Shown here: positions 1,086 through 15,607 of the stretch, piece after piece
Layout of the letters: each line of letters begins with the position of its first letter
Numbering within the stretch: the first letter of the stretch is position 1
Source of the DNA: Brevundimonas sp.
Lineage (GTDB): Bacteria > Pseudomonadota > Alphaproteobacteria > Caulobacterales > Caulobacteraceae
DNA length: 64,000 nt
Direction: 5' to 3'
NCBI RefSeq assembly: GCF_029945885.1
Contig: NZ_JAQSDK010000035.1
Span: 56,949 to 120,948, forward strand
Position numbers and translations under genes: made by a program
Notes under the pieces: model-generated
Told to the model about the DNA's origin: nothing
The model's input: only the letters and a program-made list of their open reading frames with translations
Database searches by the model: none

Positions 1086-1395
1086 TCAGAGTTCGGCCTC
1101 GGCGGGGCTGATATAGCCCGGTGACGCGTGCAGGCGACGGGGATTGTAGAAGCCCTCGATGTATCCGCACAGGTCCCGCCGCGCCTGGTCCCGGGTGGCG
1201 TAGATGCGGTGATGGACACGTTCGGTTTTGAGGGTGGGGAAGAAGCGCTCCATGGGCGCGATGTCCCAGCAGTCGCCCTTGCGGCCCATGGACGGGGTGA
1301 TGCCGCATCGGGCCAGGGCGGAGCAGTAGGCCTCGGCGGTATACTGTTTCCCGCGGTCGGAGTGGTGGATCAGGTCGGGCGCGGGCCACCAGACC
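1086..1395 (-). pseudogene. Truncated IS3-family transposase (OrfB, rve core C-terminal fragment)
   Basis: Minus-strand reading WPAPDLIHHSDRGKQYTAEAYCSALARCGITPSMGRKGDCWDIAPMERFFPTLKTERVHHRIYATRDQARRDLCGYIEGFYNPRRLHASPGYISPAEAEL; N-terminal part missing. Confidence 0.85.
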
Positions 1396-1563
1396 CCGCA
1401 TACCGGCGCGGCATATCAGCCGCTCCACGCGGGATCGACCGATCCGACGGTCATGCCGGTGCTCCAGGTTTGGACTGGCGGAACCCGCTAAACGGACATC
1501 GAGCCCGCGCTCTGTAATCGGAGTTGGGTCTGTTACCGGTACCGAAAATAACCACCCACACAA

Positions 1564-1593
1564 GCTACTGAATTATAACGATAATTCAGTAGC
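1564..1593. terminator. 13-bp perfect inverted repeat with 4-nt loop next to the left att core
   Basis: gctactgaattat-aacg-ataattcagtagc; exact complement checked by eye. Confidence 0.6.
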
Positions 1594-1595
1594 GA

Positions 1596-1609
1596 TGGCG
1601 GAGAGGGTG
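1596..1609. repeat. Left attachment-site core of the island
   Basis: tggcggagagggtg, identical to 15518-15531 (3' end of tRNA-Ser). Confidence 0.85.
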
Positions 1610-1756: not shown

Positions 1757-2989
1757 ATGGGGCGCAAGGCAACAGAACTGACGCCGCTTGCCGTAGCGCG
1801 GCTGACGGTTCCCGGCTTCTATTTCGTTGGCGGTGTCGCGGGGTTAGCCCTACAGGTTCTGCCCACGAGCGGACGGACTTGGATTCTGCGCGCGACCATC
1901 GGCGGCCGTCGACGCGACATGGGGTTGGGCGGCTATCCCGATGTCACCCTGGCTGGTGCCAGAGAAGCCGCTCGCCGGGCGCGAGAGTTGATCCGCAACG
2001 GTGAAGACCCCATCGAGCGGGCCAAGGCTGCCAGAAAGGCTCTCGCCGCTGACACGGCGAAGGCTTTCACGTTCAGCGAGGCGGCCGAGGCTTTCATTTC
2101 GGGTCAGAAGGCTGCCTGGCGCAACTCGAAGCATCGAGCCCAGTGGAGCAGCTCTCTCAACGCTTACGTCTATCCGGTCATGGGCAACCTATCGGTCGCT
2201 GACGTCGAGCTTGCGCATGTGAGCAAAGTGCTCGACCCGATCTGGACCACAAAGACGGAAACCGCCAGCCGAGTGCGCGGCCGCATGGAACAGGTGCTGG
2301 ATTGGGCCACCGCTCGAGGATATCGGACCGGCCCAAATCCAGCCCGTTGGCGGGGACACCTCGACAAGCTGCTCCCAAAGCCTTCCAGGGTTTCAAAGCC
2401 TACTCACCACCGCGCGCTACCCACCAAGGAGATCGGCCAGTTCATGGAGCGCCTTCGTGGTGCAGAGGGCATCGGCGCTCGTGCCCTGACCTTCGCCATC
2501 CTCACGGCCGCGCGATCTTGTGAGGTCCGCGGCGCCACTTGGGCCGAAATCGATATGGTTGGTCGGGTTTGGATCGTGCCGGCCTCACGGATGAAGGCCG
2601 GCCGGGAGCATCGCGTGCCGCTTTCGACATTAGCGATGGAGGTGCTTGAAACCCTACCGCGCATCGCTGGCAGCGATCTGGTGTTTCAGGCGCCGCGAGG
2701 CGGCCAGCTATCGGACATGACCCTCTCAGCGGTCCTGCGACGAATGCAGGTGCCCGCCGTGCCGCACGGGTTCCGATCGACCTTCAGGGATTGGGCAGCC
2801 GAGTACACGGCATTCCCGAGCGAGGTGGCTGAAATGGCCTTGGCACACACCGTGGGCAACAAGGTGGAGGCCGCCTATCGGCGTGGTGACTTGTTCGAGA
2901 AGCGCCGTCGGCTGGCAGAGGACTGGGCCGACTTCTGCTCCCGCCCTTTTTCGAGCGGCAGAATCGTGCCGCTGAGGGGGGCTCGATGA
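1757..2989 (+). CDS. P4-type tyrosine recombinase/integrase
   Basis: N-terminal DUF4102-like arm-binding region (GYPDVTLAGAREAARRARELIRNGEDPIERAKAAR); catalytic-domain motifs TAARSCEVRGATWAEID, HRVPLS, PHGFRSTFRDWA, LAHTVGNKVEAAYRRGD. Confidence 0.95.
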   Translation: MGRKATELTPLAVARLTVPGFYFVGGVAGLALQVLPTSGRTWILRATIGGRRRDMGLGGYPDVTLAGAREAARRARELIRNGEDPIERAKAARKALAADTAKAFTFSEAAEAFISGQKAAWRNSKHRAQWSSSLNAYVYPVMGNLSVADVELAHVSKVLDPIWTTKTETASRVRGRMEQVLDWATARGYRTGPNPARWRGHLDKLLPKPSRVSKPTHHRALPTKEIGQFMERLRGAEGIGARALTFAILTAARSCEVRGATWAEIDMVGRVWIVPASRMKAGREHRVPLSTLAMEVLETLPRIAGSDLVFQAPRGGQLSDMTLSAVLRRMQVPAVPHGFRSTFRDWAAEYTAFPSEVAEMALAHTVGNKVEAAYRRGDLFEKRRRLAEDWADFCSRPFSSGRIVPLRGAR

Positions 2990-3621
2990 ACCTGCCTTAC
3001 CACATCAGGTTCATCGTTCAGGCCAACGCGTTCAGCGCCTTTCAGAGCATGGCGGATGCGGAGGAGGGTGACTTGTCCCGGCTCGCGAAAAGAGTCGAGC
3101 GCGGTGCGGTCTTAAGCGATCAGGAACTCGCGTTTATCGCGAGGCATCTGAGAGGCGAGATCAAGAAACCCCGCCATCGTCCAGTGAAGCGCGCAACCCG
3201 GTGGTGCCAGGAGTCCATGGCGGCGATGGTCTACGTGCTCCAACATTTGCGCGGCGGTAAGCAGGACGCCGCGGTGATGGAAGCCGAAAGCCAGTTCAAG
3301 GTCGGCCGCAGCACCATCATGGAAGCATTGGCCATGAAGCGAAGGGATCCTGAGAGGGAACGTCTCTGCGACGAGATGACCAAGAAGGTGGCCGAAGCGG
3401 CCGTGACCGGCATTCCAGATTTGCCGGTGGTCGATGTGCCGCTATCCATACCGGGTGTCACGTTCGACCTCAGTCCAGTTAAGTCCGGCACTTCGTCGAC
3501 CGAGTCACCCGAGACAGGCGCGTCGTTGAGCGACAAGTCTCCTGCCGTCTCAAGCAGGAGCAAAGTTGATGCGAAATCTCCCCGAAACTTCCAGCGAGTT
3601 CCGGTTCGACGACCTTCCTGA
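2986..3621 (+). CDS. Hypothetical protein, translationally coupled to the integrase (ATGA overlap)
   Basis: ORF with ATGA junction at 2986; no recognised family. Confidence 0.6.
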   Translation: MNLPYHIRFIVQANAFSAFQSMADAEEGDLSRLAKRVERGAVLSDQELAFIARHLRGEIKKPRHRPVKRATRWCQESMAAMVYVLQHLRGGKQDAAVMEAESQFKVGRSTIMEALAMKRRDPERERLCDEMTKKVAEAAVTGIPDLPVVDVPLSIPGVTFDLSPVKSGTSSTESPETGASLSDKSPAVSSRSKVDAKSPRNFQRVPVRRPS

Positions 3622-3861: not shown

Positions 3862-4389
3862 ATGGTCGGCCGTCGCCACGACAAGACCGGCCGCTCGACC
3901 GGGGCGATGGCCGCGTCGCGCTTCGCCAAACAGAACAGGCCTCCGCAGGGCGAGGGGTTTGTCTGGTTTACTCGCCAGATTATGCGAAGTCCGGCGTTCC
4001 GGGCGATGTCTCTGAACGCTCGCAAACTGGTAGACCGCGTGCTGATCGAGCACATGGACCACGGCGGTGCCCAGAACGGCGAACTTATCGTCACCTACGC
4101 CGATCTGGTCGACTGGGGCATTCGCCGGAACAGCATTCCGCCGACAATCGCCGAAGTGGTCGCGCTCGACATCCTGGAGCATCGCCCAGGCCGCCCCTCC
4201 CACATCGCTGGCAAGGGCCATCCGCAAGTTTTCCGGATCTCGTGGTTGCCGACCGCGGATGAGCCACCATCAACGAAATGGTGCGCTTTCAAGACGATTG
4301 AGCAGGCGAACAAGGTCGCGAAGGCGGCGCGGGCCTGCGGGACTGACGCTCGCCACAACGCAAAGCGAGACCCCCCACCCAAGATATAG
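3862..4389 (+). CDS. Winged-helix/replication-initiator-like small protein of integrative elements (function unproven)
   Basis: GFVWFTRQIMRSPAFRAMSLNARKLVDRVLIEHMDHGGAQNGELIVTYADLVDWGIRRNSIPPTIAEVVALDILE resembles proteins found next to alpA/integrases in alphaproteobacteria. Confidence 0.55.
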   Translation: MVGRRHDKTGRSTGAMAASRFAKQNRPPQGEGFVWFTRQIMRSPAFRAMSLNARKLVDRVLIEHMDHGGAQNGELIVTYADLVDWGIRRNSIPPTIAEVVALDILEHRPGRPSHIAGKGHPQVFRISWLPTADEPPSTKWCAFKTIEQANKVAKAARACGTDARHNAKRDPPPKI

Positions 4390-4965: not shown

Positions 4966-7590
4966 ATGAATCAGGACAAGGGCAGTGGGGTCTCGCCTCA
5001 GGTCGAGATGTGGATCCGCCAGATCAGGAGTCAGATGGCCGCAGGGCTCCCTCTGCCGGCTGCCGCAAGCGCTGCGCGGCGAGAGCTGGAGCTGCTCCTC
5101 GGCGCGACGCTCGAAAGAGCCCAAGCGGATCAGTGGGCGGCGGCGCAGGAACACATCCGGGAAGGGCTGGAGCGCCCCATCGAATACCTGCGCCCACATT
5201 CGGTTCACAAGCCGCGTCGGCCCGAATGGTATGAGGGCAGCGCGGCCACGGACCTGCACTGGCCATCTCTGAAAGCCTTTCTCCTGCAGCGCCGCCGCTG
5301 GTCCGCGTCCACGGTGGACGGCATCGAAGACACCTCGGCCGAGGTGACCGGCATGCTCGAGGATCCCTCACTGGCCTCCTTTTCCGGCCGTGGCCTTGTC
5401 GTCGGTCATGTTCAGAGCGGCAAGACGGCGAACATGACCGCGGTCATCGCGCGTGCAGCGGACGCGGGCTATCGGTTTGTAGTCATCCTGTCGGGTCTGA
5501 CGAACGCCCTGCGCCGCCAGACCCAGTCCCGCTTAGTCAGCGATCTCATAGCCCGAAATCCGGAGCTCTGGCACCTTCACACGACTGTGGAGGATGACGG
5601 CGACTTCCAGACACCCCCCAACCGCTGGTTCTCCAGCATGGATCCGATCCAAGTCGCGGTGATCAAGAAGAACGTCACCCCGCTTCGTCGACTGATCACG
5701 GCGATTGAACGGACCAGCGAGACCCTCCGGGCGAGGATGCCGGTCCTGGTCATCGATGACGAATGCGATCAGGCGAGCGTCAACTCGAGCGGCAGCGCCT
5801 TCGACAGCACCGCCATCAACGAGGCCATTCGCACTCTGATCGCCCGCCTTCCGCGGGTCCAATATGTCGGCTATACGGCGACCCCCTTCGCCAACGTTCT
5901 GATCAACCCCCATACGGCAGAGGGAGCGCTGGACGACCTCTATCCGAGGGACTTCGTCACGGCCCTGCCCGCCTCTGACGAGTATTTCGGGACCGAGGCG
6001 CTCTTCGGTCGACCGCCGAACGACGCAGACGCCGAACAGCTCGAGGAGCAGGGGCTGGATATGATCCGGGAGGTCCCGGCCGCCGACGCGGCGGCGGTGC
6101 GCCCGGCCTCGAGGGCGCGCGCCGGCTTCTCCCCGACCGTGCCGCCCTCTCTCGAAGAGGCGCTCAGGTGGTTCGTGCTCTCCTCGAGCGCCAGGCTGGC
6201 GCGTGGTCAGGAGGGCCAGCATTTCAGCATGCTGATCCACACGACCGTCTATACCGACGCCCACGAACGGATCGCAGCGCTGATCCGCGAATGGAAGGCG
6301 GGCATCGAAGCGACGCTCACCCAGATCGAACCCGAGCTGGAGGCGCTCTGGGTCAGCGAGGCGGCTCGGGTGGACGGCAGGCGGTGGGGTCTGGATCCCC
6401 TGCCTTGGTCCTCTGTCCAGCCCTTCGTCAGAAGGCTCGTCGAGGAGCTCGAGATCATCGTGGAAAATAGCATCAGCGAGAGCCGGCTCGATTTCGGCCG
6501 GGGCACGCCGTGCCGCTACATCGTGGTCGGCGGCTCCGTGCTCGCGCGCGGGCTGACGATCGAGGGGCTGTCGGTAAGCTATTTTGTCCGCAGCTCGAGC
6601 CAGTACGACACCCTGCTCCAGATGGGGCGCTGGTTCGGCTACAGGCCCGGGTACCAGGATCTGCCCCGTATCTGGATGACGGCGGATCTTGCCGGCGCGT
6701 TCCGGGATCTTGCCCAGGTGGAGGCCGAGATCCGGCAGGACATCGCAGAGTATGCGCGGCGCGACCTCACCCCAATGGACCTTGCGGTTCGCATCCGCCA
6801 GATACCGGGAATGTCGATCACCTCGGCGGCCAAGATGATCGCTTCGGAGACCTGCGATGTCAGCTTCTCGGGCGAACACCTGCAGACCATCCGCTTCGCG
6901 AGCGACGATCTTGATCAGCTGAACCGGAACTGGGCGGCGGGCGCAGGTCTGCTCGACCGGATCTCCCAGGCTCGGGACGTCGAGACCGTCGCAAGGGGAC
7001 GACTTATCCGCGGGGCACCGCTCGATGCCGTCGCGGACTTCCTCGAGACCTACTCAGCCTCCAGTCGCGACGCCTTCGGAGCTCCCCTGATGGAGTGGAT
7101 CGCACGCGAGGCGGAAACCGGCCCGGCGTTCCGGACGTGGAATGTGGGCCTGATCGAGCCGGCGAAGGGCAGCCCGTCCATGGGCGCGCTCGGCACCATG
7201 GGACCGGTCCGCACGGTCCGGCGCGCGCGCCTGTCGGCGCGCCGGGGCGATGGTCTGGCCGACATCAAGGCGCTCATGTCCCGCCGCGACGTCCTGTTCG
7301 ACGTCGAAGGCAACACGGGTCCGGACGACTGGGCAGCCCTCAAGCGATACCGACAGAATGTCCTCGGCGACGAGATCCCCCTGCTTTTGCTCTACGCCAT
7401 CGAGGCGAGATCCGAGCCGACGCCGGGAACGACCTATCGCGCCCCCCTGGACGCGGCGACCGATGTGCTTGCGATCGGACTTGTCCTGCCCGACAGGGGC
7501 CAGCGCCGCAGCTTTGTCAGGGTCACCCTAGACCGTGAGGATGCCGACGAGGGCGAGGACCTGATGGCCGATATCGGCGGACTCCAGTGA
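4966..7590 (+). CDS. Z1 domain-containing SF2 helicase-like ATPase
   Basis: GHVQSGKTANMTAVIARAADAGYRFVVILSGLTNALRRQT; VLVIDDECDQASVN; YVGYTATPFANVLINP; GGSVLARGLTIEGLSVSYFVRSSSQYDTLLQMGRWFGYRPGY; RBS-like ggagggg before ATG 4966. Confidence 0.93.
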   Translation: MNQDKGSGVSPQVEMWIRQIRSQMAAGLPLPAAASAARRELELLLGATLERAQADQWAAAQEHIREGLERPIEYLRPHSVHKPRRPEWYEGSAATDLHWPSLKAFLLQRRRWSASTVDGIEDTSAEVTGMLEDPSLASFSGRGLVVGHVQSGKTANMTAVIARAADAGYRFVVILSGLTNALRRQTQSRLVSDLIARNPELWHLHTTVEDDGDFQTPPNRWFSSMDPIQVAVIKKNVTPLRRLITAIERTSETLRARMPVLVIDDECDQASVNSSGSAFDSTAINEAIRTLIARLPRVQYVGYTATPFANVLINPHTAEGALDDLYPRDFVTALPASDEYFGTEALFGRPPNDADAEQLEEQGLDMIREVPAADAAAVRPASRARAGFSPTVPPSLEEALRWFVLSSSARLARGQEGQHFSMLIHTTVYTDAHERIAALIREWKAGIEATLTQIEPELEALWVSEAARVDGRRWGLDPLPWSSVQPFVRRLVEELEIIVENSISESRLDFGRGTPCRYIVVGGSVLARGLTIEGLSVSYFVRSSSQYDTLLQMGRWFGYRPGYQDLPRIWMTADLAGAFRDLAQVEAEIRQDIAEYARRDLTPMDLAVRIRQIPGMSITSAAKMIASETCDVSFSGEHLQTIRFASDDLDQLNRNWAAGAGLLDRISQARDVETVARGRLIRGAPLDAVADFLETYSASSRDAFGAPLMEWIAREAETGPAFRTWNVGLIEPAKGSPSMGALGTMGPVRTVRRARLSARRGDGLADIKALMSRRDVLFDVEGNTGPDDWAALKRYRQNVLGDEIPLLLLYAIEARSEPTPGTTYRAPLDAATDVLAIGLVLPDRGQRRSFVRVTLDREDADEGEDLMADIGGLQ

Positions 7591-8603
7591 CGGCCTTCTC
7601 GATGTCGGAGGACTGGGCGCGGCTGAGGCGCGCGGGCCAGGACGCCGCGAGCGGCCTGCTCGGCCTCGCGTCGATGGAACTGGAGGCGCGTGCACCGGCA
7701 GGACGGCTGCGGCTGGCTGTGGGTCCGGCGGGTGAGCTTCTCCTGCTGGCTCCGGTCTCCGCCGCGTCCCCGCCCGGGGCGCTCCCGACCGCCGACGGCC
7801 TGCAGGTCGGCGAGGTCACGCTGCGTAGCGACGGCCGCTCGCAGCGGTTCCTGCAGCTCGCCTGCAGCGAACCCTCGCTAGAGGGCGTCTTCACGGACGT
7901 GGTGACCCAAGTTACGGCCCGCGTGGCCGACGGCGCTGCCCCGCTCGAGGCTATCGAGAGCACCATGCGCGACTATCGCGCCCTTCTGCGCAGGGCACCG
8001 GACCCGTCGCTGGACGAGGGACGGCTGATCGGCCTGCTGGGAGAGCTCCGCATCCTTGTGCGTATGCTCCAGACCCGTCCTGACGCTTGGCGCGCTTGGG
8101 CCCCACTGGCGGGTCGGCATGACTTCCGGGCCGGAGATCTCGCCCTTGAGGTCAAGACCACGCTCAGGTCGCAGGGGCGACGGGTCACGATCTCGTCGCT
8201 CGAGCAGCTTCAGGCGCCGGAGGGCGGGACTCTCGGACTGAACCTGCAGGTTCTCGAACGCGACATGAACGGCACTCTCTGCCTGTCGGCGCTCGGTCAC
8301 CAGGCGCTGGCCTTGGCCGGCGGCGCATCGGAGCTGGAGGTCCTGTTTGGCGAGTGCGGCTGGCGGCCGGACGCCTCGGAGACCGAACCGCGCTTTTCGC
8401 TCTATGTGGAAGAGACCTATGTGCTCGGCCCCGGCTTCCCTCAACTGACGCCGGGCTCTCTTCTAGAGGGAAGGCTACCCGCGGGCGTGTCGGGCGTCAC
8501 CTATGGCCTCGACCTTTCGACGGCCTCAGCCTTCCTTGTCGCCGAGGACCGGGCGCGTGCACTCGAGGAGGATCTGGCCCGTGCCCCTGCACCTCTTCGC
8601 TGA
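7587..8603 (+). CDS. PD-(D/E)XK motif (DUF4420-like) nuclease
   Basis: GTGA overlap with Z1 gene; GLLGELRILVRML...HDFRAGDLALEVKTTLRSQGRRVTISSLEQLQ. Confidence 0.82.
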   Translation: MTAFSMSEDWARLRRAGQDAASGLLGLASMELEARAPAGRLRLAVGPAGELLLLAPVSAASPPGALPTADGLQVGEVTLRSDGRSQRFLQLACSEPSLEGVFTDVVTQVTARVADGAAPLEAIESTMRDYRALLRRAPDPSLDEGRLIGLLGELRILVRMLQTRPDAWRAWAPLAGRHDFRAGDLALEVKTTLRSQGRRVTISSLEQLQAPEGGTLGLNLQVLERDMNGTLCLSALGHQALALAGGASELEVLFGECGWRPDASETEPRFSLYVEETYVLGPGFPQLTPGSLLEGRLPAGVSGVTYGLDLSTASAFLVAEDRARALEEDLARAPAPLR

Positions 8604-10374
8604 ACCGTTCCCGCCATCGGGCGCGCTGTCCGGTCGCGGCGCGCGCAAGCTGCTGGGAGCCCACTCCCTGACGCCGATCGAGGTGCTGGTCCGCGAGGCG
8701 GGCCAGAACGCCTGGGATGCGCGTCTTGAGGCCTCAGGCCAGATCCGGATGACGTTCCGTCTGCGCAGACTCCTCCCGGATCAGGCCGACATGTTGTTCG
8801 GAACAGTCCTTGGGGAACGCCCAAAGGCGGGCGGCGGTGCCGCGGGACTGGGACTGGCCGAGGCCGATCCGTCACCGCTGGTAATCGAGATCGCGGACTT
8901 CGGGACCCGAGGTCTCGGAGGGCCGACCCGTGCGGATCGTCCGGCGGCCAAAGACGAGGAGCGGAACTTCGTCAACCTCGTGCGCAATATCGGGGCCTCC
9001 GAGGACGAGGATGACCGTGGCGGAACCTACGGCTACGGCAAGATGGCCACCTTTTCGGCCAGCCGCTGCGCGACCCTAGTGATCGACTCGCTCGCGAGAC
9101 AGGGAGACGGCGAGGTCAGAAGGCTGATCGGCTGTCAGGTTGCGGACCCCTATGATGCAGGCGACCTCAGGCATACGGGCCGGCACTGGTGGGGTGAGCG
9201 CGAAGACGACGGCTTCGCCGCGCCCGTCGAGGGCCCGGACGCCGAGGCGCTCGCGCGCAGCCTAGGCCTGCCGGAGCGCGCGACTGGAAGCACGGGAACG
9301 ACGATTCTGATCGTCCACCCCGACGTCGATCCCGTCGAGGCCGCGAACGAAATCCGGCGCTCGCTCCTGTGGTGGTTTTGGCCCAAGATGATCGACCAAG
9401 GCGCGGGCCCGGCCATGACCTTCGATCTCGAACTCGAGGGCGAGATGCAGACCATTCCCTCGCCCGAGAGCACCGCTCCGCTCGACATTTACGTTGAGGC
9501 CTGGCGAAAGCTGAAGGCCGGTGACCCGGGCGTCATCAAGACCCGCGTGGCCAGCTATGGCAATCTCGTCACCGGCCAAGTTGCCACCGCCCGCGGCTTT
9601 CACCGGCCGAGGACCTTCCTGCAGACCGGACCGGCGAGCGAGAGATCGCACCACATCGCGCTGATGCGACCCGTGGAACTGGTGGTGACCTATCTGGAGG
9701 GCACGCCGCTCTCCGCCGAGGAGGTCGAATGGGGGGGCGTGTTCATCTGCGATGAGGCCAACGAGGTGCTGGCCGCCTTCACGGCAGCCGAGCCGCCCGC
9801 TCACGACGCCTGGTCGCCGGAGACCCTTCGCGGACGACCGTTCCGGATCGTAAACCGGAGCCTGGAACTTCTCAGGCAGGTGGCGAGGGAAACCGGCCAG
9901 CCAGTTCAGGTGATCACGGGCACGAGCGAGACCCAGCCGCCTCTCGCCATTCCCTCGCGGCTTCTCGGCCGACTACTGCCAGACGATCCGGACGCTGACG
10001 GCCCCGGTCGCAGGTCAAGGCCCATCAGGGGAGCCCGCAAGCGCTGGCAGGTCGAGGCGCCGGAATTCGTCTCGCTGGAGCAGGTCGGCGACCAAGTCCA
10101 TTCGCTCTTTTCCGTGAACGCCAGAAACTCCAGCGCGCGCCCGATTGTCGTCGAGGCCCGACCCGGCCTGTTCATCGACGACCGGCTGACCACGGAGACA
10201 GATCTTGCGGACGGCAGCCACATCCGGGGGCTCGGCTGGCAGAATGCCGAAGGGGACGTCCGATCCGACGGAACCCATGTCGTGATCGAGCCTGGCGCGA
10301 ACGAGACCCTGACTTTCCGGATCCTGATGTCCGGGCTGGCGGCCGTGGGCCTGACGCTCCGGGTCGAGGCCTGA
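8581..10374 (+). CDS. GHKL (MutL/MORC/Hsp90-like) ATPase
   Basis: REAGQNAWDAR N-box, EIADFGTRGLGG, GGTYGYGKMATFSAS; GTG start overlapping the previous gene (ORF-track start at 8503 is probably too early). Confidence 0.82.
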   Translation: MPLHLFAEPFPPSGALSGRGARKLLGAHSLTPIEVLVREAGQNAWDARLEASGQIRMTFRLRRLLPDQADMLFGTVLGERPKAGGGAAGLGLAEADPSPLVIEIADFGTRGLGGPTRADRPAAKDEERNFVNLVRNIGASEDEDDRGGTYGYGKMATFSASRCATLVIDSLARQGDGEVRRLIGCQVADPYDAGDLRHTGRHWWGEREDDGFAAPVEGPDAEALARSLGLPERATGSTGTTILIVHPDVDPVEAANEIRRSLLWWFWPKMIDQGAGPAMTFDLELEGEMQTIPSPESTAPLDIYVEAWRKLKAGDPGVIKTRVASYGNLVTGQVATARGFHRPRTFLQTGPASERSHHIALMRPVELVVTYLEGTPLSAEEVEWGGVFICDEANEVLAAFTAAEPPAHDAWSPETLRGRPFRIVNRSLELLRQVARETGQPVQVITGTSETQPPLAIPSRLLGRLLPDDPDADGPGRRSRPIRGARKRWQVEAPEFVSLEQVGDQVHSLFSVNARNSSARPIVVEARPGLFIDDRLTTETDLADGSHIRGLGWQNAEGDVRSDGTHVVIEPGANETLTFRILMSGLAAVGLTLRVEA

Positions 10375-10376
10375 TC

Positions 10377-11270
10377 ATGGCGTCCATCGCATTTCCCTAT
10401 CTTCGGATCCGGCCGGACAATGTCTTGGCCGACACTTGGACAATCGAACGCGGCGAGCACGTCAGCTATCTGACCGAGAGGCTCGAGGACTGGGATCCGA
10501 CCGAGGTTCTCCACCTGCGCCGCAGGATCCGGCTCAACTTCGACCAGGCGGCGCTAGCCCTGGGCGTGCCGGCCGGCAACCTCGTCATGCGCGCGAGCCT
10601 CATCTTCGGCACCGGAGGGCCACGGGGCGAGCGGCTCCGCACGATCCGCGAGTCGCATCTGCTCACCCAGGCCTCGCCCGAGGCCGAGTTCGCCTTGGTG
10701 CTGGAGGGAGACGAGGTGTCGGAGCGTCTAGCGCTGAGAACCATAATCACCCTGCACGAGACGGCTCCAGGGTCCGCCTTGTCTCCTGCCCGGCCGGGGG
10801 TGGAACTCTGGCACGACTTGACCCGCATGGGCCTAGAACCCGAGGAGCCGCGGTTCGCCATCCAGGTGGAGAGCTTCGCCTCCGTGTTCAGGGACACGCC
10901 ACACGCGCTCTGGCGGCTGGACTGGACTCCGGCCGTGATCGATCGGGACATGGCCGGAAACGTAAGGCTCTACGTCAACGCCGATCGCCCCGAGTTCGTG
11001 GAACGCGTTAGCGCCGGCGACGCTTCGACGATGAACATGATGACCGCGGCCGTGATGGAACAGCTGGTCTCCTCCGTCCTCGCCCATAACGCCGCCCCTG
11101 AAGGAGACGAGGCCCCGACCTCGATTGCGGTCACGGTCGGCGGATGGATCGAGCAGGCCTTCCCCGGCCAAGACGCGCCAAGTGTCCGGGAACTCGTCAG
11201 ACGGGACCCCGCCGCCTTCTCCGCCGGTCTGGCGACCCTCGCGGCCGAACTGGGACACGCAGATGACTGA
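10377..11270 (+). CDS. Uncharacterised protein of the Z1/GHKL operon
   Basis: ORF 2 nt after the GHKL stop; MASIAFPYLRIRPDNVLADTWTIERGEHVSYL; no recognised motif. Confidence 0.7.
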   Translation: MASIAFPYLRIRPDNVLADTWTIERGEHVSYLTERLEDWDPTEVLHLRRRIRLNFDQAALALGVPAGNLVMRASLIFGTGGPRGERLRTIRESHLLTQASPEAEFALVLEGDEVSERLALRTIITLHETAPGSALSPARPGVELWHDLTRMGLEPEEPRFAIQVESFASVFRDTPHALWRLDWTPAVIDRDMAGNVRLYVNADRPEFVERVSAGDASTMNMMTAAVMEQLVSSVLAHNAAPEGDEAPTSIAVTVGGWIEQAFPGQDAPSVRELVRRDPAAFSAGLATLAAELGHADD

Positions 11271-12018
11271 CGTCACGCCGCCACCTCCCCTCATGCCGCG
11301 CCTCTCTCTCCACGGCGTCCGGCGGCTGCTTGCTAGCGCCGAGCTGATGCAGGCTCCATGGAGGGAGCGCCGGGCCGCCGCTGAGCGCTGGACAACCCTG
11401 CCGCCAGTTGGCGGTGCAGTCGCCGGCGAGGCGGCTCTGGCGGCTTTGGCCGAGGATCTCTTGGCCATCGCGACCGCCAGCGGCTTTCCCGACGACGACA
11501 GGCAGGCGGCGGTCTTCGATGCCGAGGCCGCCGTCCTTCTCGGCCAGGGCGGTCACATGCGGGAAAGCGACGCCCTGCGAGACGACGTCTGGGCCTTTGT
11601 GGCCACCGTTTTGCTGCCAGAGATCGTGCGCTGGCGCTTCGGATCCCAAGAGGAGCGCTATCGCGGTGGCGTCCGCAACGTGTTCCAGCGGCTCTGGCTG
11701 CGCGCCATGGCCCTCGATCGCGGACCCCAAGCCGGAGAGGAGCGCTGGGACTTGGCTCGCGCTCTCAACGAGGACGCGATAGCGGCCATCATCGAGCGGC
11801 CCGGCTTGGCCGGCTCCCGGGCCGTGTCGCGAGCTCTCGGCGAGCGCTGGCACCAAGAACGTCTGACGGCGGGGCCGGGCGGCTTGGAGGACCGCATGCG
11901 CAGCGTGGCCCGCAACCTGCTGGTGACCAACCAGGTTATGCGTCTCGAGCTATTGGGAGCCGCCGACCTCGAGGCCGAGATCGATCGACTGTTTATCAGC
12001 GCGGCTGCAGCGCCTTGA
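11263..12018 (+). CDS. Uncharacterised protein of the Z1/GHKL operon
   Basis: ATG 11263 overlaps upstream stop (ATGACTGA); MTDVTPPPPLMPRLSLHGVRRLLASAELMQ. Confidence 0.65.
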   Translation: MTDVTPPPPLMPRLSLHGVRRLLASAELMQAPWRERRAAAERWTTLPPVGGAVAGEAALAALAEDLLAIATASGFPDDDRQAAVFDAEAAVLLGQGGHMRESDALRDDVWAFVATVLLPEIVRWRFGSQEERYRGGVRNVFQRLWLRAMALDRGPQAGEERWDLARALNEDAIAAIIERPGLAGSRAVSRALGERWHQERLTAGPGGLEDRMRSVARNLLVTNQVMRLELLGAADLEAEIDRLFISAAAAP

Positions 12019-13520
12019 AGCGGTTCGTCGCGCCCCGCAACGCGCGGATCAAAGCGGACGACAGCCGTTCGCTCGGGCGCTGGATGCTGCGCCGCATGCC
12101 TCTCGATGAGGAGGGCATCCGATGCGCATTCGAGCTCTCCCGTCTCGCGCCGTCGGGCGACGCGGTCATCGGCATGGTCCGGATCATGCGGAGCGGCAAC
12201 CGGGCAGGGCGCACCTTCCTGCCCGAGACCTTCGACGCGCTGGGGTCGCAGTATGCCTCCCTCGGTGCAGAGCCGGGCTTCTACGACCGGATTGTCGAGG
12301 TCGCGGGAGATCACCTCGCGCGCGAGGTGCTGGTCGCATTGAGGGACATCGCCATCGACCCGGCCGCTGCGGCGATTGCGGACGCGGATAATGCGATCCG
12401 CAGTGCGCTGCTTCGCACCTCGCCGGCCATCGCGGCCCGTGAGGAGGGCGGCAGCCGGTTCGCCAACCGGATCAGTCCGAGAGACCTCTCGCCGCGCCAC
12501 CTGCGCTTTCAGTCCTCATCGGGCGCGGATCTCCGTCTCGAGTTCACCTTCGATGACCTCCTGCCGGGCCGCGTCTGTGTCGTGGTGGGGCAGAACGGCT
12601 CGGGCAAGACTTGGCTTCTTGCCCGGCTTGCGCTCTGCGCTTTCGAGCCGGGCGCGTCGAAAGACAGCATCGAGGGTGACCTGTCGCTGACGCGCATCCT
12701 AGCCTTTTCGTACAGCGCATTTGACGAGTTCGACGTCCCTGGCGAGACGCTCGCGGAGCGGCAGGCCTACGTCCGCCAAGGCCCGAATGTCGGCTACGCC
12801 TATTTCGGTCTTCGAGATCTGTCGCGGAGCCGCAGGCAGGAGGACGCGCCCCTAAAGGGCTCCAGGAGCATCGCAGCCGACTTCGACGACGCCTTGTCGC
12901 TGGCAATGGATGACGACGACGGCCTGCTTCAGGAGCTCGTCACCCTGCTGTTCAAGGAGAGTTCGTTCGGCGGATTTCATGCAGCGCCCTCGGATGAGGA
13001 ACTCGCCGACCTGACCCTGCTGCGCCGACGCTTCCGGCGGTCCAGTACGGGACACAAGTTCGTCCTGCTGCTCATGGTCCAGCTGGCCGCCTTTGTGCGC
13101 AAGGGGACGCTGGTCTTGATCGACGAGCCCGAGGCGCATCTGCATCCGCCGCTCCTCGTCACCTTCCTGACCCTGTTGCGGGAGGTCCTCCTCCGACGCG
13201 ACGCTTGCGCGGTGGTCGCCACCCATTCGCCGCTGGTCGTCCAAGAGACACCCGCGCGGCATGTCTGCATCGTGGAGCGGGACATCGGCCTGACCGGAAT
13301 CCGCTCACCCGAACTGGAGACCTTTGGCGAGGACATCGGCGAAATCTCCCGCGAGGTCTTCAGGCTCCAAGCACCGATCGGCGACTATCCGGGCGTGCTC
13401 GCGCGCTTGGCCGACTCGATGACGCTGCAGGCGATCGAGGCCCTCTTCCCGCGGGGGCTGAGCGGACAGGCCAGAGGAATGATTATGGCCCGCCAAGCCC
13501 GACGGCGGGCAGGTCGATGA
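12015..13520 (+). CDS. ABC/OLD-like P-loop ATPase
   Basis: VVVGQNGSGKTWLL Walker A; SSTGHKFVLLLM signature-like; LVLIDEPEAHLHPP Walker B; VVATHSPLVVQE H-loop; TTGA overlap with upstream gene. Confidence 0.9.
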   Translation: MKRFVAPRNARIKADDSRSLGRWMLRRMPLDEEGIRCAFELSRLAPSGDAVIGMVRIMRSGNRAGRTFLPETFDALGSQYASLGAEPGFYDRIVEVAGDHLAREVLVALRDIAIDPAAAAIADADNAIRSALLRTSPAIAAREEGGSRFANRISPRDLSPRHLRFQSSSGADLRLEFTFDDLLPGRVCVVVGQNGSGKTWLLARLALCAFEPGASKDSIEGDLSLTRILAFSYSAFDEFDVPGETLAERQAYVRQGPNVGYAYFGLRDLSRSRRQEDAPLKGSRSIAADFDDALSLAMDDDDGLLQELVTLLFKESSFGGFHAAPSDEELADLTLLRRRFRRSSTGHKFVLLLMVQLAAFVRKGTLVLIDEPEAHLHPPLLVTFLTLLREVLLRRDACAVVATHSPLVVQETPARHVCIVERDIGLTGIRSPELETFGEDIGEISREVFRLQAPIGDYPGVLARLADSMTLQAIEALFPRGLSGQARGMIMARQARRRAGR

Positions 13521-14377
13521 GGTCCCTGCCGACCCCTGTGAGGGATGCGGAAGCTGACCTGCGCCTGTGCGCGCGCAGGGTCAGGAATGAGCGACGCCTC
13601 GTCATCCGGGTCCGGCTCGAGGACGCGCTCGCCCAGTACGACGACTATGTCGCCGGAAGGGGGCGACCGGACGCGGTCGCCGCCAGCCGGGATTGGCCCG
13701 AGAGCTCTGCGTACTTCGCTCTGTACGACTTTCTGGGCGAGCGCCGTGCGCTTGCAGGCCTGCGGCTGGAGCTGAGGGCGGCCGCGGGCGGACGCTGCCT
13801 GCTCTGCTCCAGCCGGTCCGTCGACGGCTTGGACCACCATCTGCCAAGATCAGACTATCCGGCGCTCTCGATCCTGCCGGTGAACCTCGTGCCGGCCTGC
13901 GCGCACTGCAACACCCTGAAGGGCAACAACTGCGATCCCGTGGTCGCGCGTCAGTTCGTCCACCCCTACTTCGACCGCCTCCCGCGTGACCAGCCCTGGC
14001 TGACCTGCGAGGCCTTCGACGCCGCTGGGGTCTGGTCGCCGGTGTTCAGTATCGACGATACCCATATCCTCGACCCGGAAACGCGGGCGCGCACGGCGTG
14101 GCAGTTCGACCAGCTGGAACTGGCCGATGAATATCACGAGTCCGCGGTCAAGCAGGTCGCGGGGCGTCTGCGCGAATGGAGCACTACGGTCAGGGATGGC
14201 GGGGTCCACACTCTGGCACGCCAGCTACGTCTCGAGATGATGTCTGAAGCGGACGAGTACGGAGCTAATCACTGGAAGCCCGTAGTCCTGCGCGGAATTC
14301 TCGCCGATCCCCGTTTTCACCGCGACCCCCTTCCCCTGTTCGGCAATCCCCGTCCCTTCCCCGGAGATTGGCGATGA
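13517..14377 (+). CDS. HNH endonuclease
   Basis: CLLCSSRSVDGLDHHLPRSDYPALSILPVNLVPACAHCNTLKGNNCDPV; ATGA overlap with the ATPase gene. Confidence 0.88.
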   Translation: MRSLPTPVRDAEADLRLCARRVRNERRLVIRVRLEDALAQYDDYVAGRGRPDAVAASRDWPESSAYFALYDFLGERRALAGLRLELRAAAGGRCLLCSSRSVDGLDHHLPRSDYPALSILPVNLVPACAHCNTLKGNNCDPVVARQFVHPYFDRLPRDQPWLTCEAFDAAGVWSPVFSIDDTHILDPETRARTAWQFDQLELADEYHESAVKQVAGRLREWSTTVRDGGVHTLARQLRLEMMSEADEYGANHWKPVVLRGILADPRFHRDPLPLFGNPRPFPGDWR

Positions 14378-14503
14378 TAGGTCACGTTCATCCGGCGACT
14401 GGACCCGTCGCGCAAGGAAGGACGACGACCTTCCGGGCCGACCCGACCGGCCGCGCGGCCGTCCGGGCGGACAGAGGGATCGACAGAACAGGGAGGAGAT
14501 CCC

Positions 14504-15199
14504 GTGGAGCGGATCGAAGACTTTAGCGACGAACGTCACAAGGCTTGGTGCATTCACTGCGGGGCGGTGCTGAACGACACCTTGACCAACCGGGATCACG
14601 CGCCGACGAAGTCGCTGCTCAATCGACCGCTCCCGCACCACGTCCCGCAGGTGCCAGTCTGCGCGTCCTGCAATAACGGCTTCTCGAAGGACGAGGCCTA
14701 TCTCGTGTGCTTCTTCAGCTGTGTGCTCACCGGTTCGACAGAGCCCGAGGCGCAGGTCATTGCGGCGGCCTCGCGCCTGCTCGAGAGCAATCCCGGCCTC
14801 AGGGCGCGTCTTGACCAGGCCCGCAGCACCGACGCCGCGGGGGCTAGCGTATGGGTGCCCGAGACGGCCCGGCTCAACAGGATCATCGTGAAGAACGCAA
14901 GGGCCCACGCCTTCTTCGAGCTAGGCGAACCGCTCCGTGACGAACCAACCGACGTGGTCAGCGTGCCCCTGAACGCTATGTCTGCCGAGTTGAGGCATAA
15001 TTTCGAGAGTGTGGTCTGGGAGGTCTGGCCAGAGGTCGGAAGCCGGCTGATGACCCGACTGGCAACCGGCGAGGGCCTCGTCGACGGCTGGATCGTCGTC
15101 CAGCCCGGGATCTACCGCTACGCCGTCCTGCAGGACGACGGCATCGTGGTCCGATCTGTTATTCGCGATCACATCGCCATCGAGACCCGCTGGGCCTGA
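14504..15199 (+). CDS. Second HNH/zinc-ribbon-like protein
   Basis: CIHCGAVLNDTLTNRDHAPTKSLL...VPQVPVCASCNNGFSKDEAYL; GTG start preceded by gggagg. Confidence 0.7.
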   Translation: MERIEDFSDERHKAWCIHCGAVLNDTLTNRDHAPTKSLLNRPLPHHVPQVPVCASCNNGFSKDEAYLVCFFSCVLTGSTEPEAQVIAAASRLLESNPGLRARLDQARSTDAAGASVWVPETARLNRIIVKNARAHAFFELGEPLRDEPTDVVSVPLNAMSAELRHNFESVVWEVWPEVGSRLMTRLATGEGLVDGWIVVQPGIYRYAVLQDDGIVVRSVIRDHIAIETRWA

Positions 15200-15517
15200 C
15201 GGGTGCCAAGAGCGGCGAAGGCCAAGAAGCCGCACCGTCGGCAACCGGCAGACTGCAGGCATCGGGCCATACGCGGTCGGTCCAGTCGTTCACCCACGAA
15301 AGCTAGGTAAAAATCATTGGCCGCCGCATGCATCTGCATTGCGGACGCATCCGCGAGGAGCATTGTCTCCGAAATAATTTTTCGCGGGCAGCCAACTCGG
15401 CCAGCGTGACCCCCACCCCCCCCTAAGATTCTCGAAGACAGAGACTTCGGCTTAGATGGGCGTGATGATGGGTGTTGACTCCATCCAGCCCGCATATTCA
15501 GCGGTGACCGGGGCCGG

Positions 15518-15607
<90 letters not shown>

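What the first reader, a model, noticed from the sequence alone, without database searches (positions are those of the whole stretch)
4966..15199. Eight-gene Z1-helicase / DUF4420 nuclease / GHKL ATPase / ABC-ATPase / HNH operon: candidate new composite anti-phage system
Seen: eight same-strand genes. The first seven overlap or abut (GTGA at 7587, GTG 8581 inside the previous ORF, 2-nt gap at 10375, ATGACTGA at 11263, TTGA at 12015, ATGA at 13517), which implies one co-translated unit. Established: Z1-type helicases linked to MutL/MORC-like GHKL ATPases and PD-(D/E)XK nucleases are known from MORC-type R-M contexts and from the Mza (MutL/Z1/DUF/AIPR) defence system. Inference: the Z1+DUF4420+GHKL core matches that family, but the AIPR gene is absent and an ABC/OLD-like ATPase, an HNH nuclease, a second HNH-like protein and two unknown proteins take its place. 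This looks like an undescribed subtype or a merged system.
Basis: partly seen in the sequence, partly recalled or inferred. Interest (0 to 1): 0.92.

Follow-up and report, generated by a model that had tools for sequence, protein, structure and literature searches.

The report
Restriction core with Septu-like effector pair
A bacterial mobile island carries a widespread but experimentally untested ATP-driven restriction machine, normally paired with a cytosine methyltransferase that is missing here, to which one alphaproteobacterial lineage has added a second, Septu-like nuclease pair.

Summary
The eight genes are real, intact and arranged as described. They are not one new eight-part system but three layers.

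(1) Core: Z1 ATPase, DUF4420 PD-(D/E)XK protein, GHKL ATPase, unknown "P4", DUF6339. This ordered five-gene core occurs in 74 of 89 loci from about ten phyla. Of the 89 loci, 81 also carry a cytosine-5 methyltransferase (Dcm; median gap 66 bp in ordered-core loci) and 70 a Vsr endonuclease. The GHKL protein carries the ExxxH motif that defines paraMORC2, so the core is the restriction-modification (R-M) type predicted by Iyer et al. 2008. It is not Mza. PADLOC holds part of it as candidate PDC-M33.

(2) ABC-ATPase/HNH pair: PADLOC candidate PDC-M01, Septu-like, free-standing elsewhere. It joined this operon once, in a lineage of five loci (Caulobacteraceae, Rhizobiaceae plasmids), monophyletic in both gene trees.

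(3) Last gene: an HNH-like accessory whose plasmid relatives mostly sit beside Dcm/Vsr/MORC genes.

Unusually, this copy has no methyltransferase or Vsr on its island (integrase, tRNA-Ser repeats); three Dcm genes lie elsewhere in the genome.

Verdict: new variant of a known but experimentally uncharacterised kind. No function was tested.

The parts
1593..1609 (.). left direct repeat of the island (putative att)
   Evidence: 16 of 17 nt match to 15515-15531
1757..2989 (+). tyrosine integrase of the island
   Evidence: Pfam Arm-DNA-bind_3, Phage_int_M, Phage_integrase; PHROG integrase
2986..3621 (+). island gene of unknown function, 211 aa
   Evidence: no PADLOC or PHROGs match
3862..4389 (+). 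island ORF of unknown function, 175 aa
   Evidence: no Pfam, PADLOC, NCBIfam or PHROGs match
4966..7590 (+). core gene 1: Z1-domain SF2 ATPase (Walker A GHVQSGKT, DDECD, YDTLLQMGRWFG)
   Evidence: Pfam Z1 4e-63; 157 of 163 conserved columns kept
7587..8603 (+). core gene 2: DUF4420 PD-(D/E)XK protein
   Evidence: Pfam 4e-35; D, E and K conserved
8581..10374 (+). core gene 3: paraMORC2-type GHKL ATPase with EPPxHD
   Evidence: GHKL motifs and ExxxH invariant in alignment A1; PDC-M33A 4e-16
10377..11270 (+). core gene 4: P4, beta-sandwich plus helical protein of unknown function
   Evidence: present in 87 of 89 loci; model pLDDT 92
11263..12018 (+). core gene 5: DUF6339-family all-helical protein
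   Evidence: present in 87 of 89 loci; relatives hit PF19866 and PDC-M33C; model pLDDT 95.5
12015..13520 (+). added pair, gene 6: ABC ATPase (PDC-M01A / PtuA-like)
   Evidence: PADLOC 3e-79 and 9e-59; linked group monophyletic
13517..14377 (+). added pair, gene 7: HNH protein (PDC-M01B)
   Evidence: PADLOC 8e-45; PHROG HNH 2e-26
14504..15199 (+). gene 8: HNH-like accessory protein
   Evidence: weak HNH_5 similarity (0.027); plasmid relatives mostly beside Dcm/Vsr/MORC genes
15515..15531 (.). right direct repeat, overlapping the 3' end of tRNA-Ser(cga) 15518-15607 (-)

Best explanation
A mobile island carries the restriction half of a paraMORC2-type, cytosine-methylation-linked, ATP-dependent R-M system, to which one alphaproteobacterial lineage has added a Septu-like ATPase/HNH pair as a second effector. 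Shown: gene content, intact conserved residues, conserved order, Dcm/Vsr linkage in relatives, single origin of the added pair, island borders, no linked Dcm here. Inferred: the paraMORC2 ATPase with P4 and DUF6339 recognises or clamps target DNA lacking the cognate 5-methylcytosine; the Z1 ATPase moves along DNA, as is proposed for the Z1 subunits of CglI/NgoAVII; the DUF4420 PD-(D/E)XK protein cuts; the PDC-M01 pair, coupled to the same alarm, cuts DNA or RNA as a back-up. Host protection must come from an unlinked methyltransferase (best candidate: the Dcm of the Dcm-Vsr-MvaI/BcnI locus on contig C37), or else the system does not act on unmodified self DNA.
For: The 89 loci were found by the GHKL protein or its neighbour P4 alone, yet they carry Dcm in 81, Vsr in 70, Z1 in 85, DUF4420 in 81, P4 in 87 and DUF6339 in 87. 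The ordered core is in 74; in those, Dcm lies a median 66 bp away and within 1 kb in 62. Pfam confirms representative Dcm and Vsr labels. The window genome has 3 Dcm loci in 3.1 Mb, so chance linkage is negligible. The 2008 paper predicts this helicase + RE-fold protein + paraMORC + Dcm + Vsr set. Z1 ATPases power restriction in CglI/NgoAVII, beside a 5mC methyltransferase (PMC4267653). The ABC-linked loci are one clade in the ABC tree (100/100) and in the GHKL tree (99), so pair and core were inherited together down to about 45-49% identity; in the window core and pair genes overlap or abut. DUF4420 is lost in 3 of the 5 loci with the pair against 1 of 80 other Z1-bearing loci, as expected if the pair can stand in for it.
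Against: No bench test of any paraMORC2 system was found in the literature searched, so restriction is a prediction. The window copy has no linked methyltransferase; the C37 Dcm has its own restriction enzyme and is found in 24 of 131 genus genomes, mostly without this system. The DUF4420 losses in the pair-bearing clade are only about two events on the tree. The roles given to P4 and DUF6339 are guesses.
Confidence: 0.68

Rival explanations
1. The restriction core has lost its methyltransferase and now acts as a modification-independent infection sensor; the Septu-like ABC/HNH pair is its effector and kills or stalls the infected cell.
For: No Dcm or Vsr on the island or elsewhere on contig C35 while all genes stay intact; the pair is co-inherited with the core; PtuAB serves another sensor, retron-Eco7, and causes tRNA-Tyr degradation and abortive infection (PMC11555353).
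Against: The sister loci L011, L142, L095 and L096 keep Dcm and Vsr, so the pair arose with methylation still in place; an unlinked Dcm may serve.
Confidence: 0.17
2. Two independent defence systems sit side by side: a paraMORC2 R-M core and a PDC-M01/Septu-like pair that do not interact; co-transcription is only a convenience.
For: The pair stands alone in many genomes and plasmids and most cores lack it.
Against: A single acquisition followed by joint inheritance in two families, overlapping genes and preferential loss of DUF4420 argue for coupling.
Confidence: 0.3
3. It is a subtype of the Mza defence system.
For: MzaC and MzaD profiles match genes 1 and 2.
Against: No match to any other Mza protein; matches far below NCBIfam cut-offs; a different GHKL family with constant partners P4 and DUF6339, and Dcm/Vsr linkage.
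Confidence: 0.03

Closest known systems
paraMORC2-containing R-M operons (Iyer, Abhiman & Aravind 2008, PMC2292703)
   Same: Z1-type SF2 helicase with the DThhQXuRhFG motif, RE-fold partner protein, GHKL + S5 ATPase with ExxxH, Dcm and Vsr neighbours, patchy mobile distribution
   Different: P4 and DUF6339 are not named in the text read (the figure could not be read); the window lacks Dcm/Vsr and carries the ABC/HNH pair and an HNH-like gene
PADLOC candidate PDC-M33 (A/B/C)
   Same: A matches this GHKL family; DUF6339 relatives hit C; a protein in the place of P4 in L010 hits B
   Different: The window's own P4 and DUF6339 give no hit; none of the Z1 or DUF4420 proteins tested hit a PDC-M33 model; L010's B protein was not linked to P4 by my profile, only by place and size
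PADLOC candidate PDC-M01 and Septu (PtuA/PtuB)
   Same: Genes 6-7 are an ABC-ATPase/HNH pair with near full-length matches to PDC-M01A/B and PtuA
   Different: Placed downstream of an R-M core in this lineage rather than alone or with a retron
Mza (MzaC, MzaD)
   Same: Z1 and DUF4420 components
   Different: No other Mza protein found; different GHKL family; no AIPR
CglI / NgoAVII R-M (PMC4267653)
   Same: Z1-bearing ATPase, separate nuclease, 5mC methyltransferase
   Different: PLD nuclease with B3 domain instead of DUF4420; no GHKL, P4 or DUF6339
Corynebacterium diphtheriae BH8 island (PMC5379612)
   Same: Z1, DUF4420, Dcm-like methylase, EcoRII-like nuclease and three unclassified proteins, plausibly GHKL, P4 and DUF6339 as in L072 (C. 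xerosis)
   Different: Listed in passing, not named as a system; no ABC/HNH pair mentioned in the passages read

Membership tests
paraMORC2 R-M operons (Iyer 2008) | GHKL ATPase with a conserved ExxxH motif in the S5 region | tested here: met
   EPPxHD invariant in A1, conserved in at least 90% of 89 sequences and kept in the window
paraMORC2 R-M operons (Iyer 2008) | SF2 helicase with the DThhQXuRhFG motif next to it | tested here: met
   YDTLLQMGRWFG in gene 1; Z1 4e-63
paraMORC2 R-M operons (Iyer 2008) | RE-fold partner protein | tested here: met
   DUF4420 with conserved D-x8-E-x-K
paraMORC2 R-M operons (Iyer 2008) | linked DNA methyltransferase, often with Vsr | tested here: not met
   Absent from the island and contig C35 in the window genome; met in 81 and 70 of 89 loci. 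The paper calls these genes frequent, not universal
paraMORC2 R-M operons (Iyer 2008) | restriction of unmodified DNA | not testable with these tools
   needs phage or plasmid assays
Mza | MutL-type protein, AIPR and the remaining Mza genes together with Z1 and DUF4420 | tested here: not met
   Only MzaC and MzaD models hit, and below NCBIfam cut-offs
PDC-M33 (PADLOC candidate) | A, B and C components together | tested here: inconclusive
   A hit at 4e-16; C reached only through relatives, B only by position in L010
PDC-M01 / Septu | adjacent ABC-ATPase (A) and HNH (B) genes | tested here: met
   PDC-M01A 3e-79, PDC-M01B 8e-45, PtuA 9e-59
PDC-M01 / Septu | tRNA or DNA cleavage on infection | not testable with these tools
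   tRNA-Tyr cleavage is reported for retron-Eco7 PtuAB and for Septu; needs experiment here

The most novel reading that the evidence does not exclude
A restriction core that lost its methyltransferase has become a modification-independent infection sensor that drives a Septu-like ATPase/HNH effector pair, so that a GHKL/Z1 R-M machine works as an abortive-infection switch.
Probability: 0.18. Interest if true: 0.75.

Novelty: new variant of a known kind. Interest (0 to 1): 0.52.

Why it matters
The five-gene core with Dcm and Vsr is spread over about ten bacterial phyla (and, in a diverged form, a haloarchaeal plasmid), yet I found it only as a 2008 prediction and as a partial PADLOC candidate. 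Defining its gene set, including P4 and DUF6339 (a confident model with no match among solved structures), makes it testable and could show what MORC-like GHKL ATPases do in bacteria. The ABC/HNH lineage is a clear case of one defence system taking on another system's effector.

Tried and rejected
Mza membership: tested, not met. A linked or decayed methyltransferase in the window: tblastn of all cluster Dcm and Vsr proteins gave no hit. The C37 Dcm-Vsr as obvious partner: it has its own MvaI/BcnI-type enzyme and circulates in the genus independently; kept only as a candidate. Solved-structure sequence searches for P4, DUF6339 and GHKL gave nothing useful. Fold searches: DUF6339 none; P4 only generic beta-sandwiches. 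A scan with P4 over 240 alphaproteobacterial genomes found only the window, so the GHKL alignment was used. A joined-flank empty-site search: no genome matched across the joint, as the left flank is not adjacent to this tRNA in relatives; in most of 61 genomes the right-flank homology starts at the repeat, so the repeat, not an empty site, supports the border. Papers naming DUF6339: none; recent papers joining Vsr, GHKL and defence: none. DefenseFinder and REBASE were not available. First ABC tree included two distant ABC-UvrD paralogues and a long branch and was unresolved; rebuilt without them.
Full report
OBSERVATION. The genes lie on an island: integrase 1757-2989, tRNA-Ser(cga) 15518-15607, and a 17-nt direct repeat at 1593-1609 and 15515-15531, the second copy overlapping the 3' end of the tRNA. 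In most of 61 genus genomes homology to the right flank starts at this repeat.

FAMILIES. Gene 1: Pfam Z1 (4e-63). Gene 2: DUF4420 (4e-35). Genes 6 and 7: ABC ATPase and HNH. PADLOC hits are MzaC, MzaD, PDC-M33A (gene 3, 4e-16), PDC-M01A (gene 6, 3e-79; PtuA 9e-59) and PDC-M01B (gene 7, 8e-45); genes 4, 5 and 8 have none. NCBIfam gives MzaC and MzaD far below cut-off.

RELATIVES. tblastn in plasmids found the core in Agrobacterium, Rhizobium and Synechococcus plasmids and distant forms in haloarchaea and Paenarthrobacter. An alignment of six GHKL proteins (A1) retrieved 80 loci from many phyla; three more came from the genus, where only 4 of 131 genomes, the window's included, have the system. 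Six-frame searches with iterated profiles over 89 loci gave: Z1 85, DUF4420 81, GHKL 89 (by design), P4 87, DUF6339 87, Dcm 81, Vsr 70, EcoRII-like nuclease 10, MORC 9, ABC 5, HNH 6. The ordered core Z1-DUF4420-GHKL-P4-DUF6339 is present in 74. Of those, 68 have Dcm, at a median 66 bp from the core and within 1 kb in 62. Representative Dcm, Vsr, EcoRII-C and MORC-cluster proteins were checked with Pfam. Several loci without Dcm are cut by contig ends; the window is not.

WHAT IT IS. Iyer, Abhiman and Aravind (PMC2292703) predicted R-M systems made of a distinct SF2 helicase with a DThhQXuRhFG motif, an RE-fold partner, Dcm, Vsr and a MORC or paraMORC GHKL ATPase; paraMORC2 is marked by ExxxH in the S5 region. 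The window has YDTLLQMGRWFG in gene 1 and EPPAHD in gene 3, both conserved in the family. The core therefore belongs to that predicted kind. A 2017 paper lists a Corynebacterium island with Z1, DUF4420, Dcm, an EcoRII-like nuclease and three unclassified proteins (PMC5379612), which I take to be the same core. P4 and DUF6339 are constant partners that no text I could read names. Z1-bearing ATPases are known at the bench from CglI and NgoAVII, where one drives a separate nuclease beside a 5mC methyltransferase (PMC4267653).

THE ADDED PAIR. ABC-HNH pairs of this kind stand alone in other genomes and plasmids. In five loci (window, L011, L142, L095, L096) the pair follows DUF6339 directly. These five are one clade in the ABC tree (100/100) and in the GHKL tree (99): one acquisition, then joint inheritance. 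Three of the five lack DUF4420, against 1 of 80 other Z1-bearing loci (Fisher p = 0.0004); on the tree this is only about two losses, so it is suggestive. PtuAB pairs are known to serve another sensor, retron-Eco7 (PMC11555353), which makes recruitment plausible.

GENE 8. Nine plasmid homologues were found. Six lie near Dcm (five of them also near Vsr), one (L127) near a MORC-like ATPase and a helicase, one (L158) next to an ABC-HNH pair, and one (L128) has no such neighbour; L124 and L129 look like copies of one locus. Gene 8 is thus a travelling HNH-like accessory of this class of islands rather than part of the core.

NO METHYLTRANSFERASE HERE. The genome has three Dcm genes on other contigs and one Vsr. 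The C37 Dcm, 47-58% identical to Dcm enzymes of seven loci in the set, sits with Vsr and an MvaI/BcnI-family enzyme, and 24 of 131 genus genomes (the window's included) have a match. It could protect the host if specificities match; that is untested. The C4 and C14 Dcm enzymes are less similar to those of the set. The window genes keep nearly all conserved residues, so decay is unlikely.

STRUCTURE. DUF6339: confident all-helical model (pLDDT 95.5), no match in PDB or BFVD at E up to 0.001, with conserved arginines that may bind nucleic acid (inference). P4: beta-sandwich plus helices (pLDDT 92), weak generic matches.

MECHANISM. Most likely GHKL-P4-DUF6339 form the site-sensing or clamp part, Z1 translocates, DUF4420 cuts, and the Septu-like pair provides a second effector. 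Each functional step is inference from families; none was tested.

Noticed in passing
L097:13502-16811 (G000:C37, same genome as the window): Complete type II R-M in the same genome: MvaI/BcnI-family nuclease, Vsr and Dcm; 24 of 131 genus genomes have a match to this Dcm.
   Followed up: partly
L098:3207-8978 (G000:C4, same genome as the window): Probable further defence or R-M locus: a 440-aa ParB-like protein, a SNF2-type helicase, a 286-aa protein with an E-V-K motif, and a Dcm on the opposite strand (by eye except the Dcm).
   Followed up: no
L095:15372-18033 and L096:18244-20905: A further ATPase plus UvrD-helicase-like pair directly upstream of the Z1 gene in the Agrobacterium and Rhizobium plasmids, with a MORC/HNH/EcoRII-like R-M downstream: a dense defence island.
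   Followed up: no
L066, L069, L070, L077, L080: Actinobacterial loci carry both a paraMORC2-type and a MORC-type ATPase with Dcm and Vsr.
   Followed up: partly
L056 and L079: Cyanobacterial loci carry a second, reversed GHKL + DUF6339 set next to the Dcm.
   Followed up: no
L009 and L010: Haloarchaeal and Paenarthrobacter plasmids hold diverged GHKL + unknown + DUF6339 sets with Dcm but no recognisable Z1 or DUF4420.
   Followed up: partly
window 1128-1517: Looks like an IS3-type transposase remnant on the minus strand beside the island's left end (by eye).
   Followed up: no
window 14442-14467: GC-rich palindrome between genes 7 and 8 without a T run.
   Followed up: no
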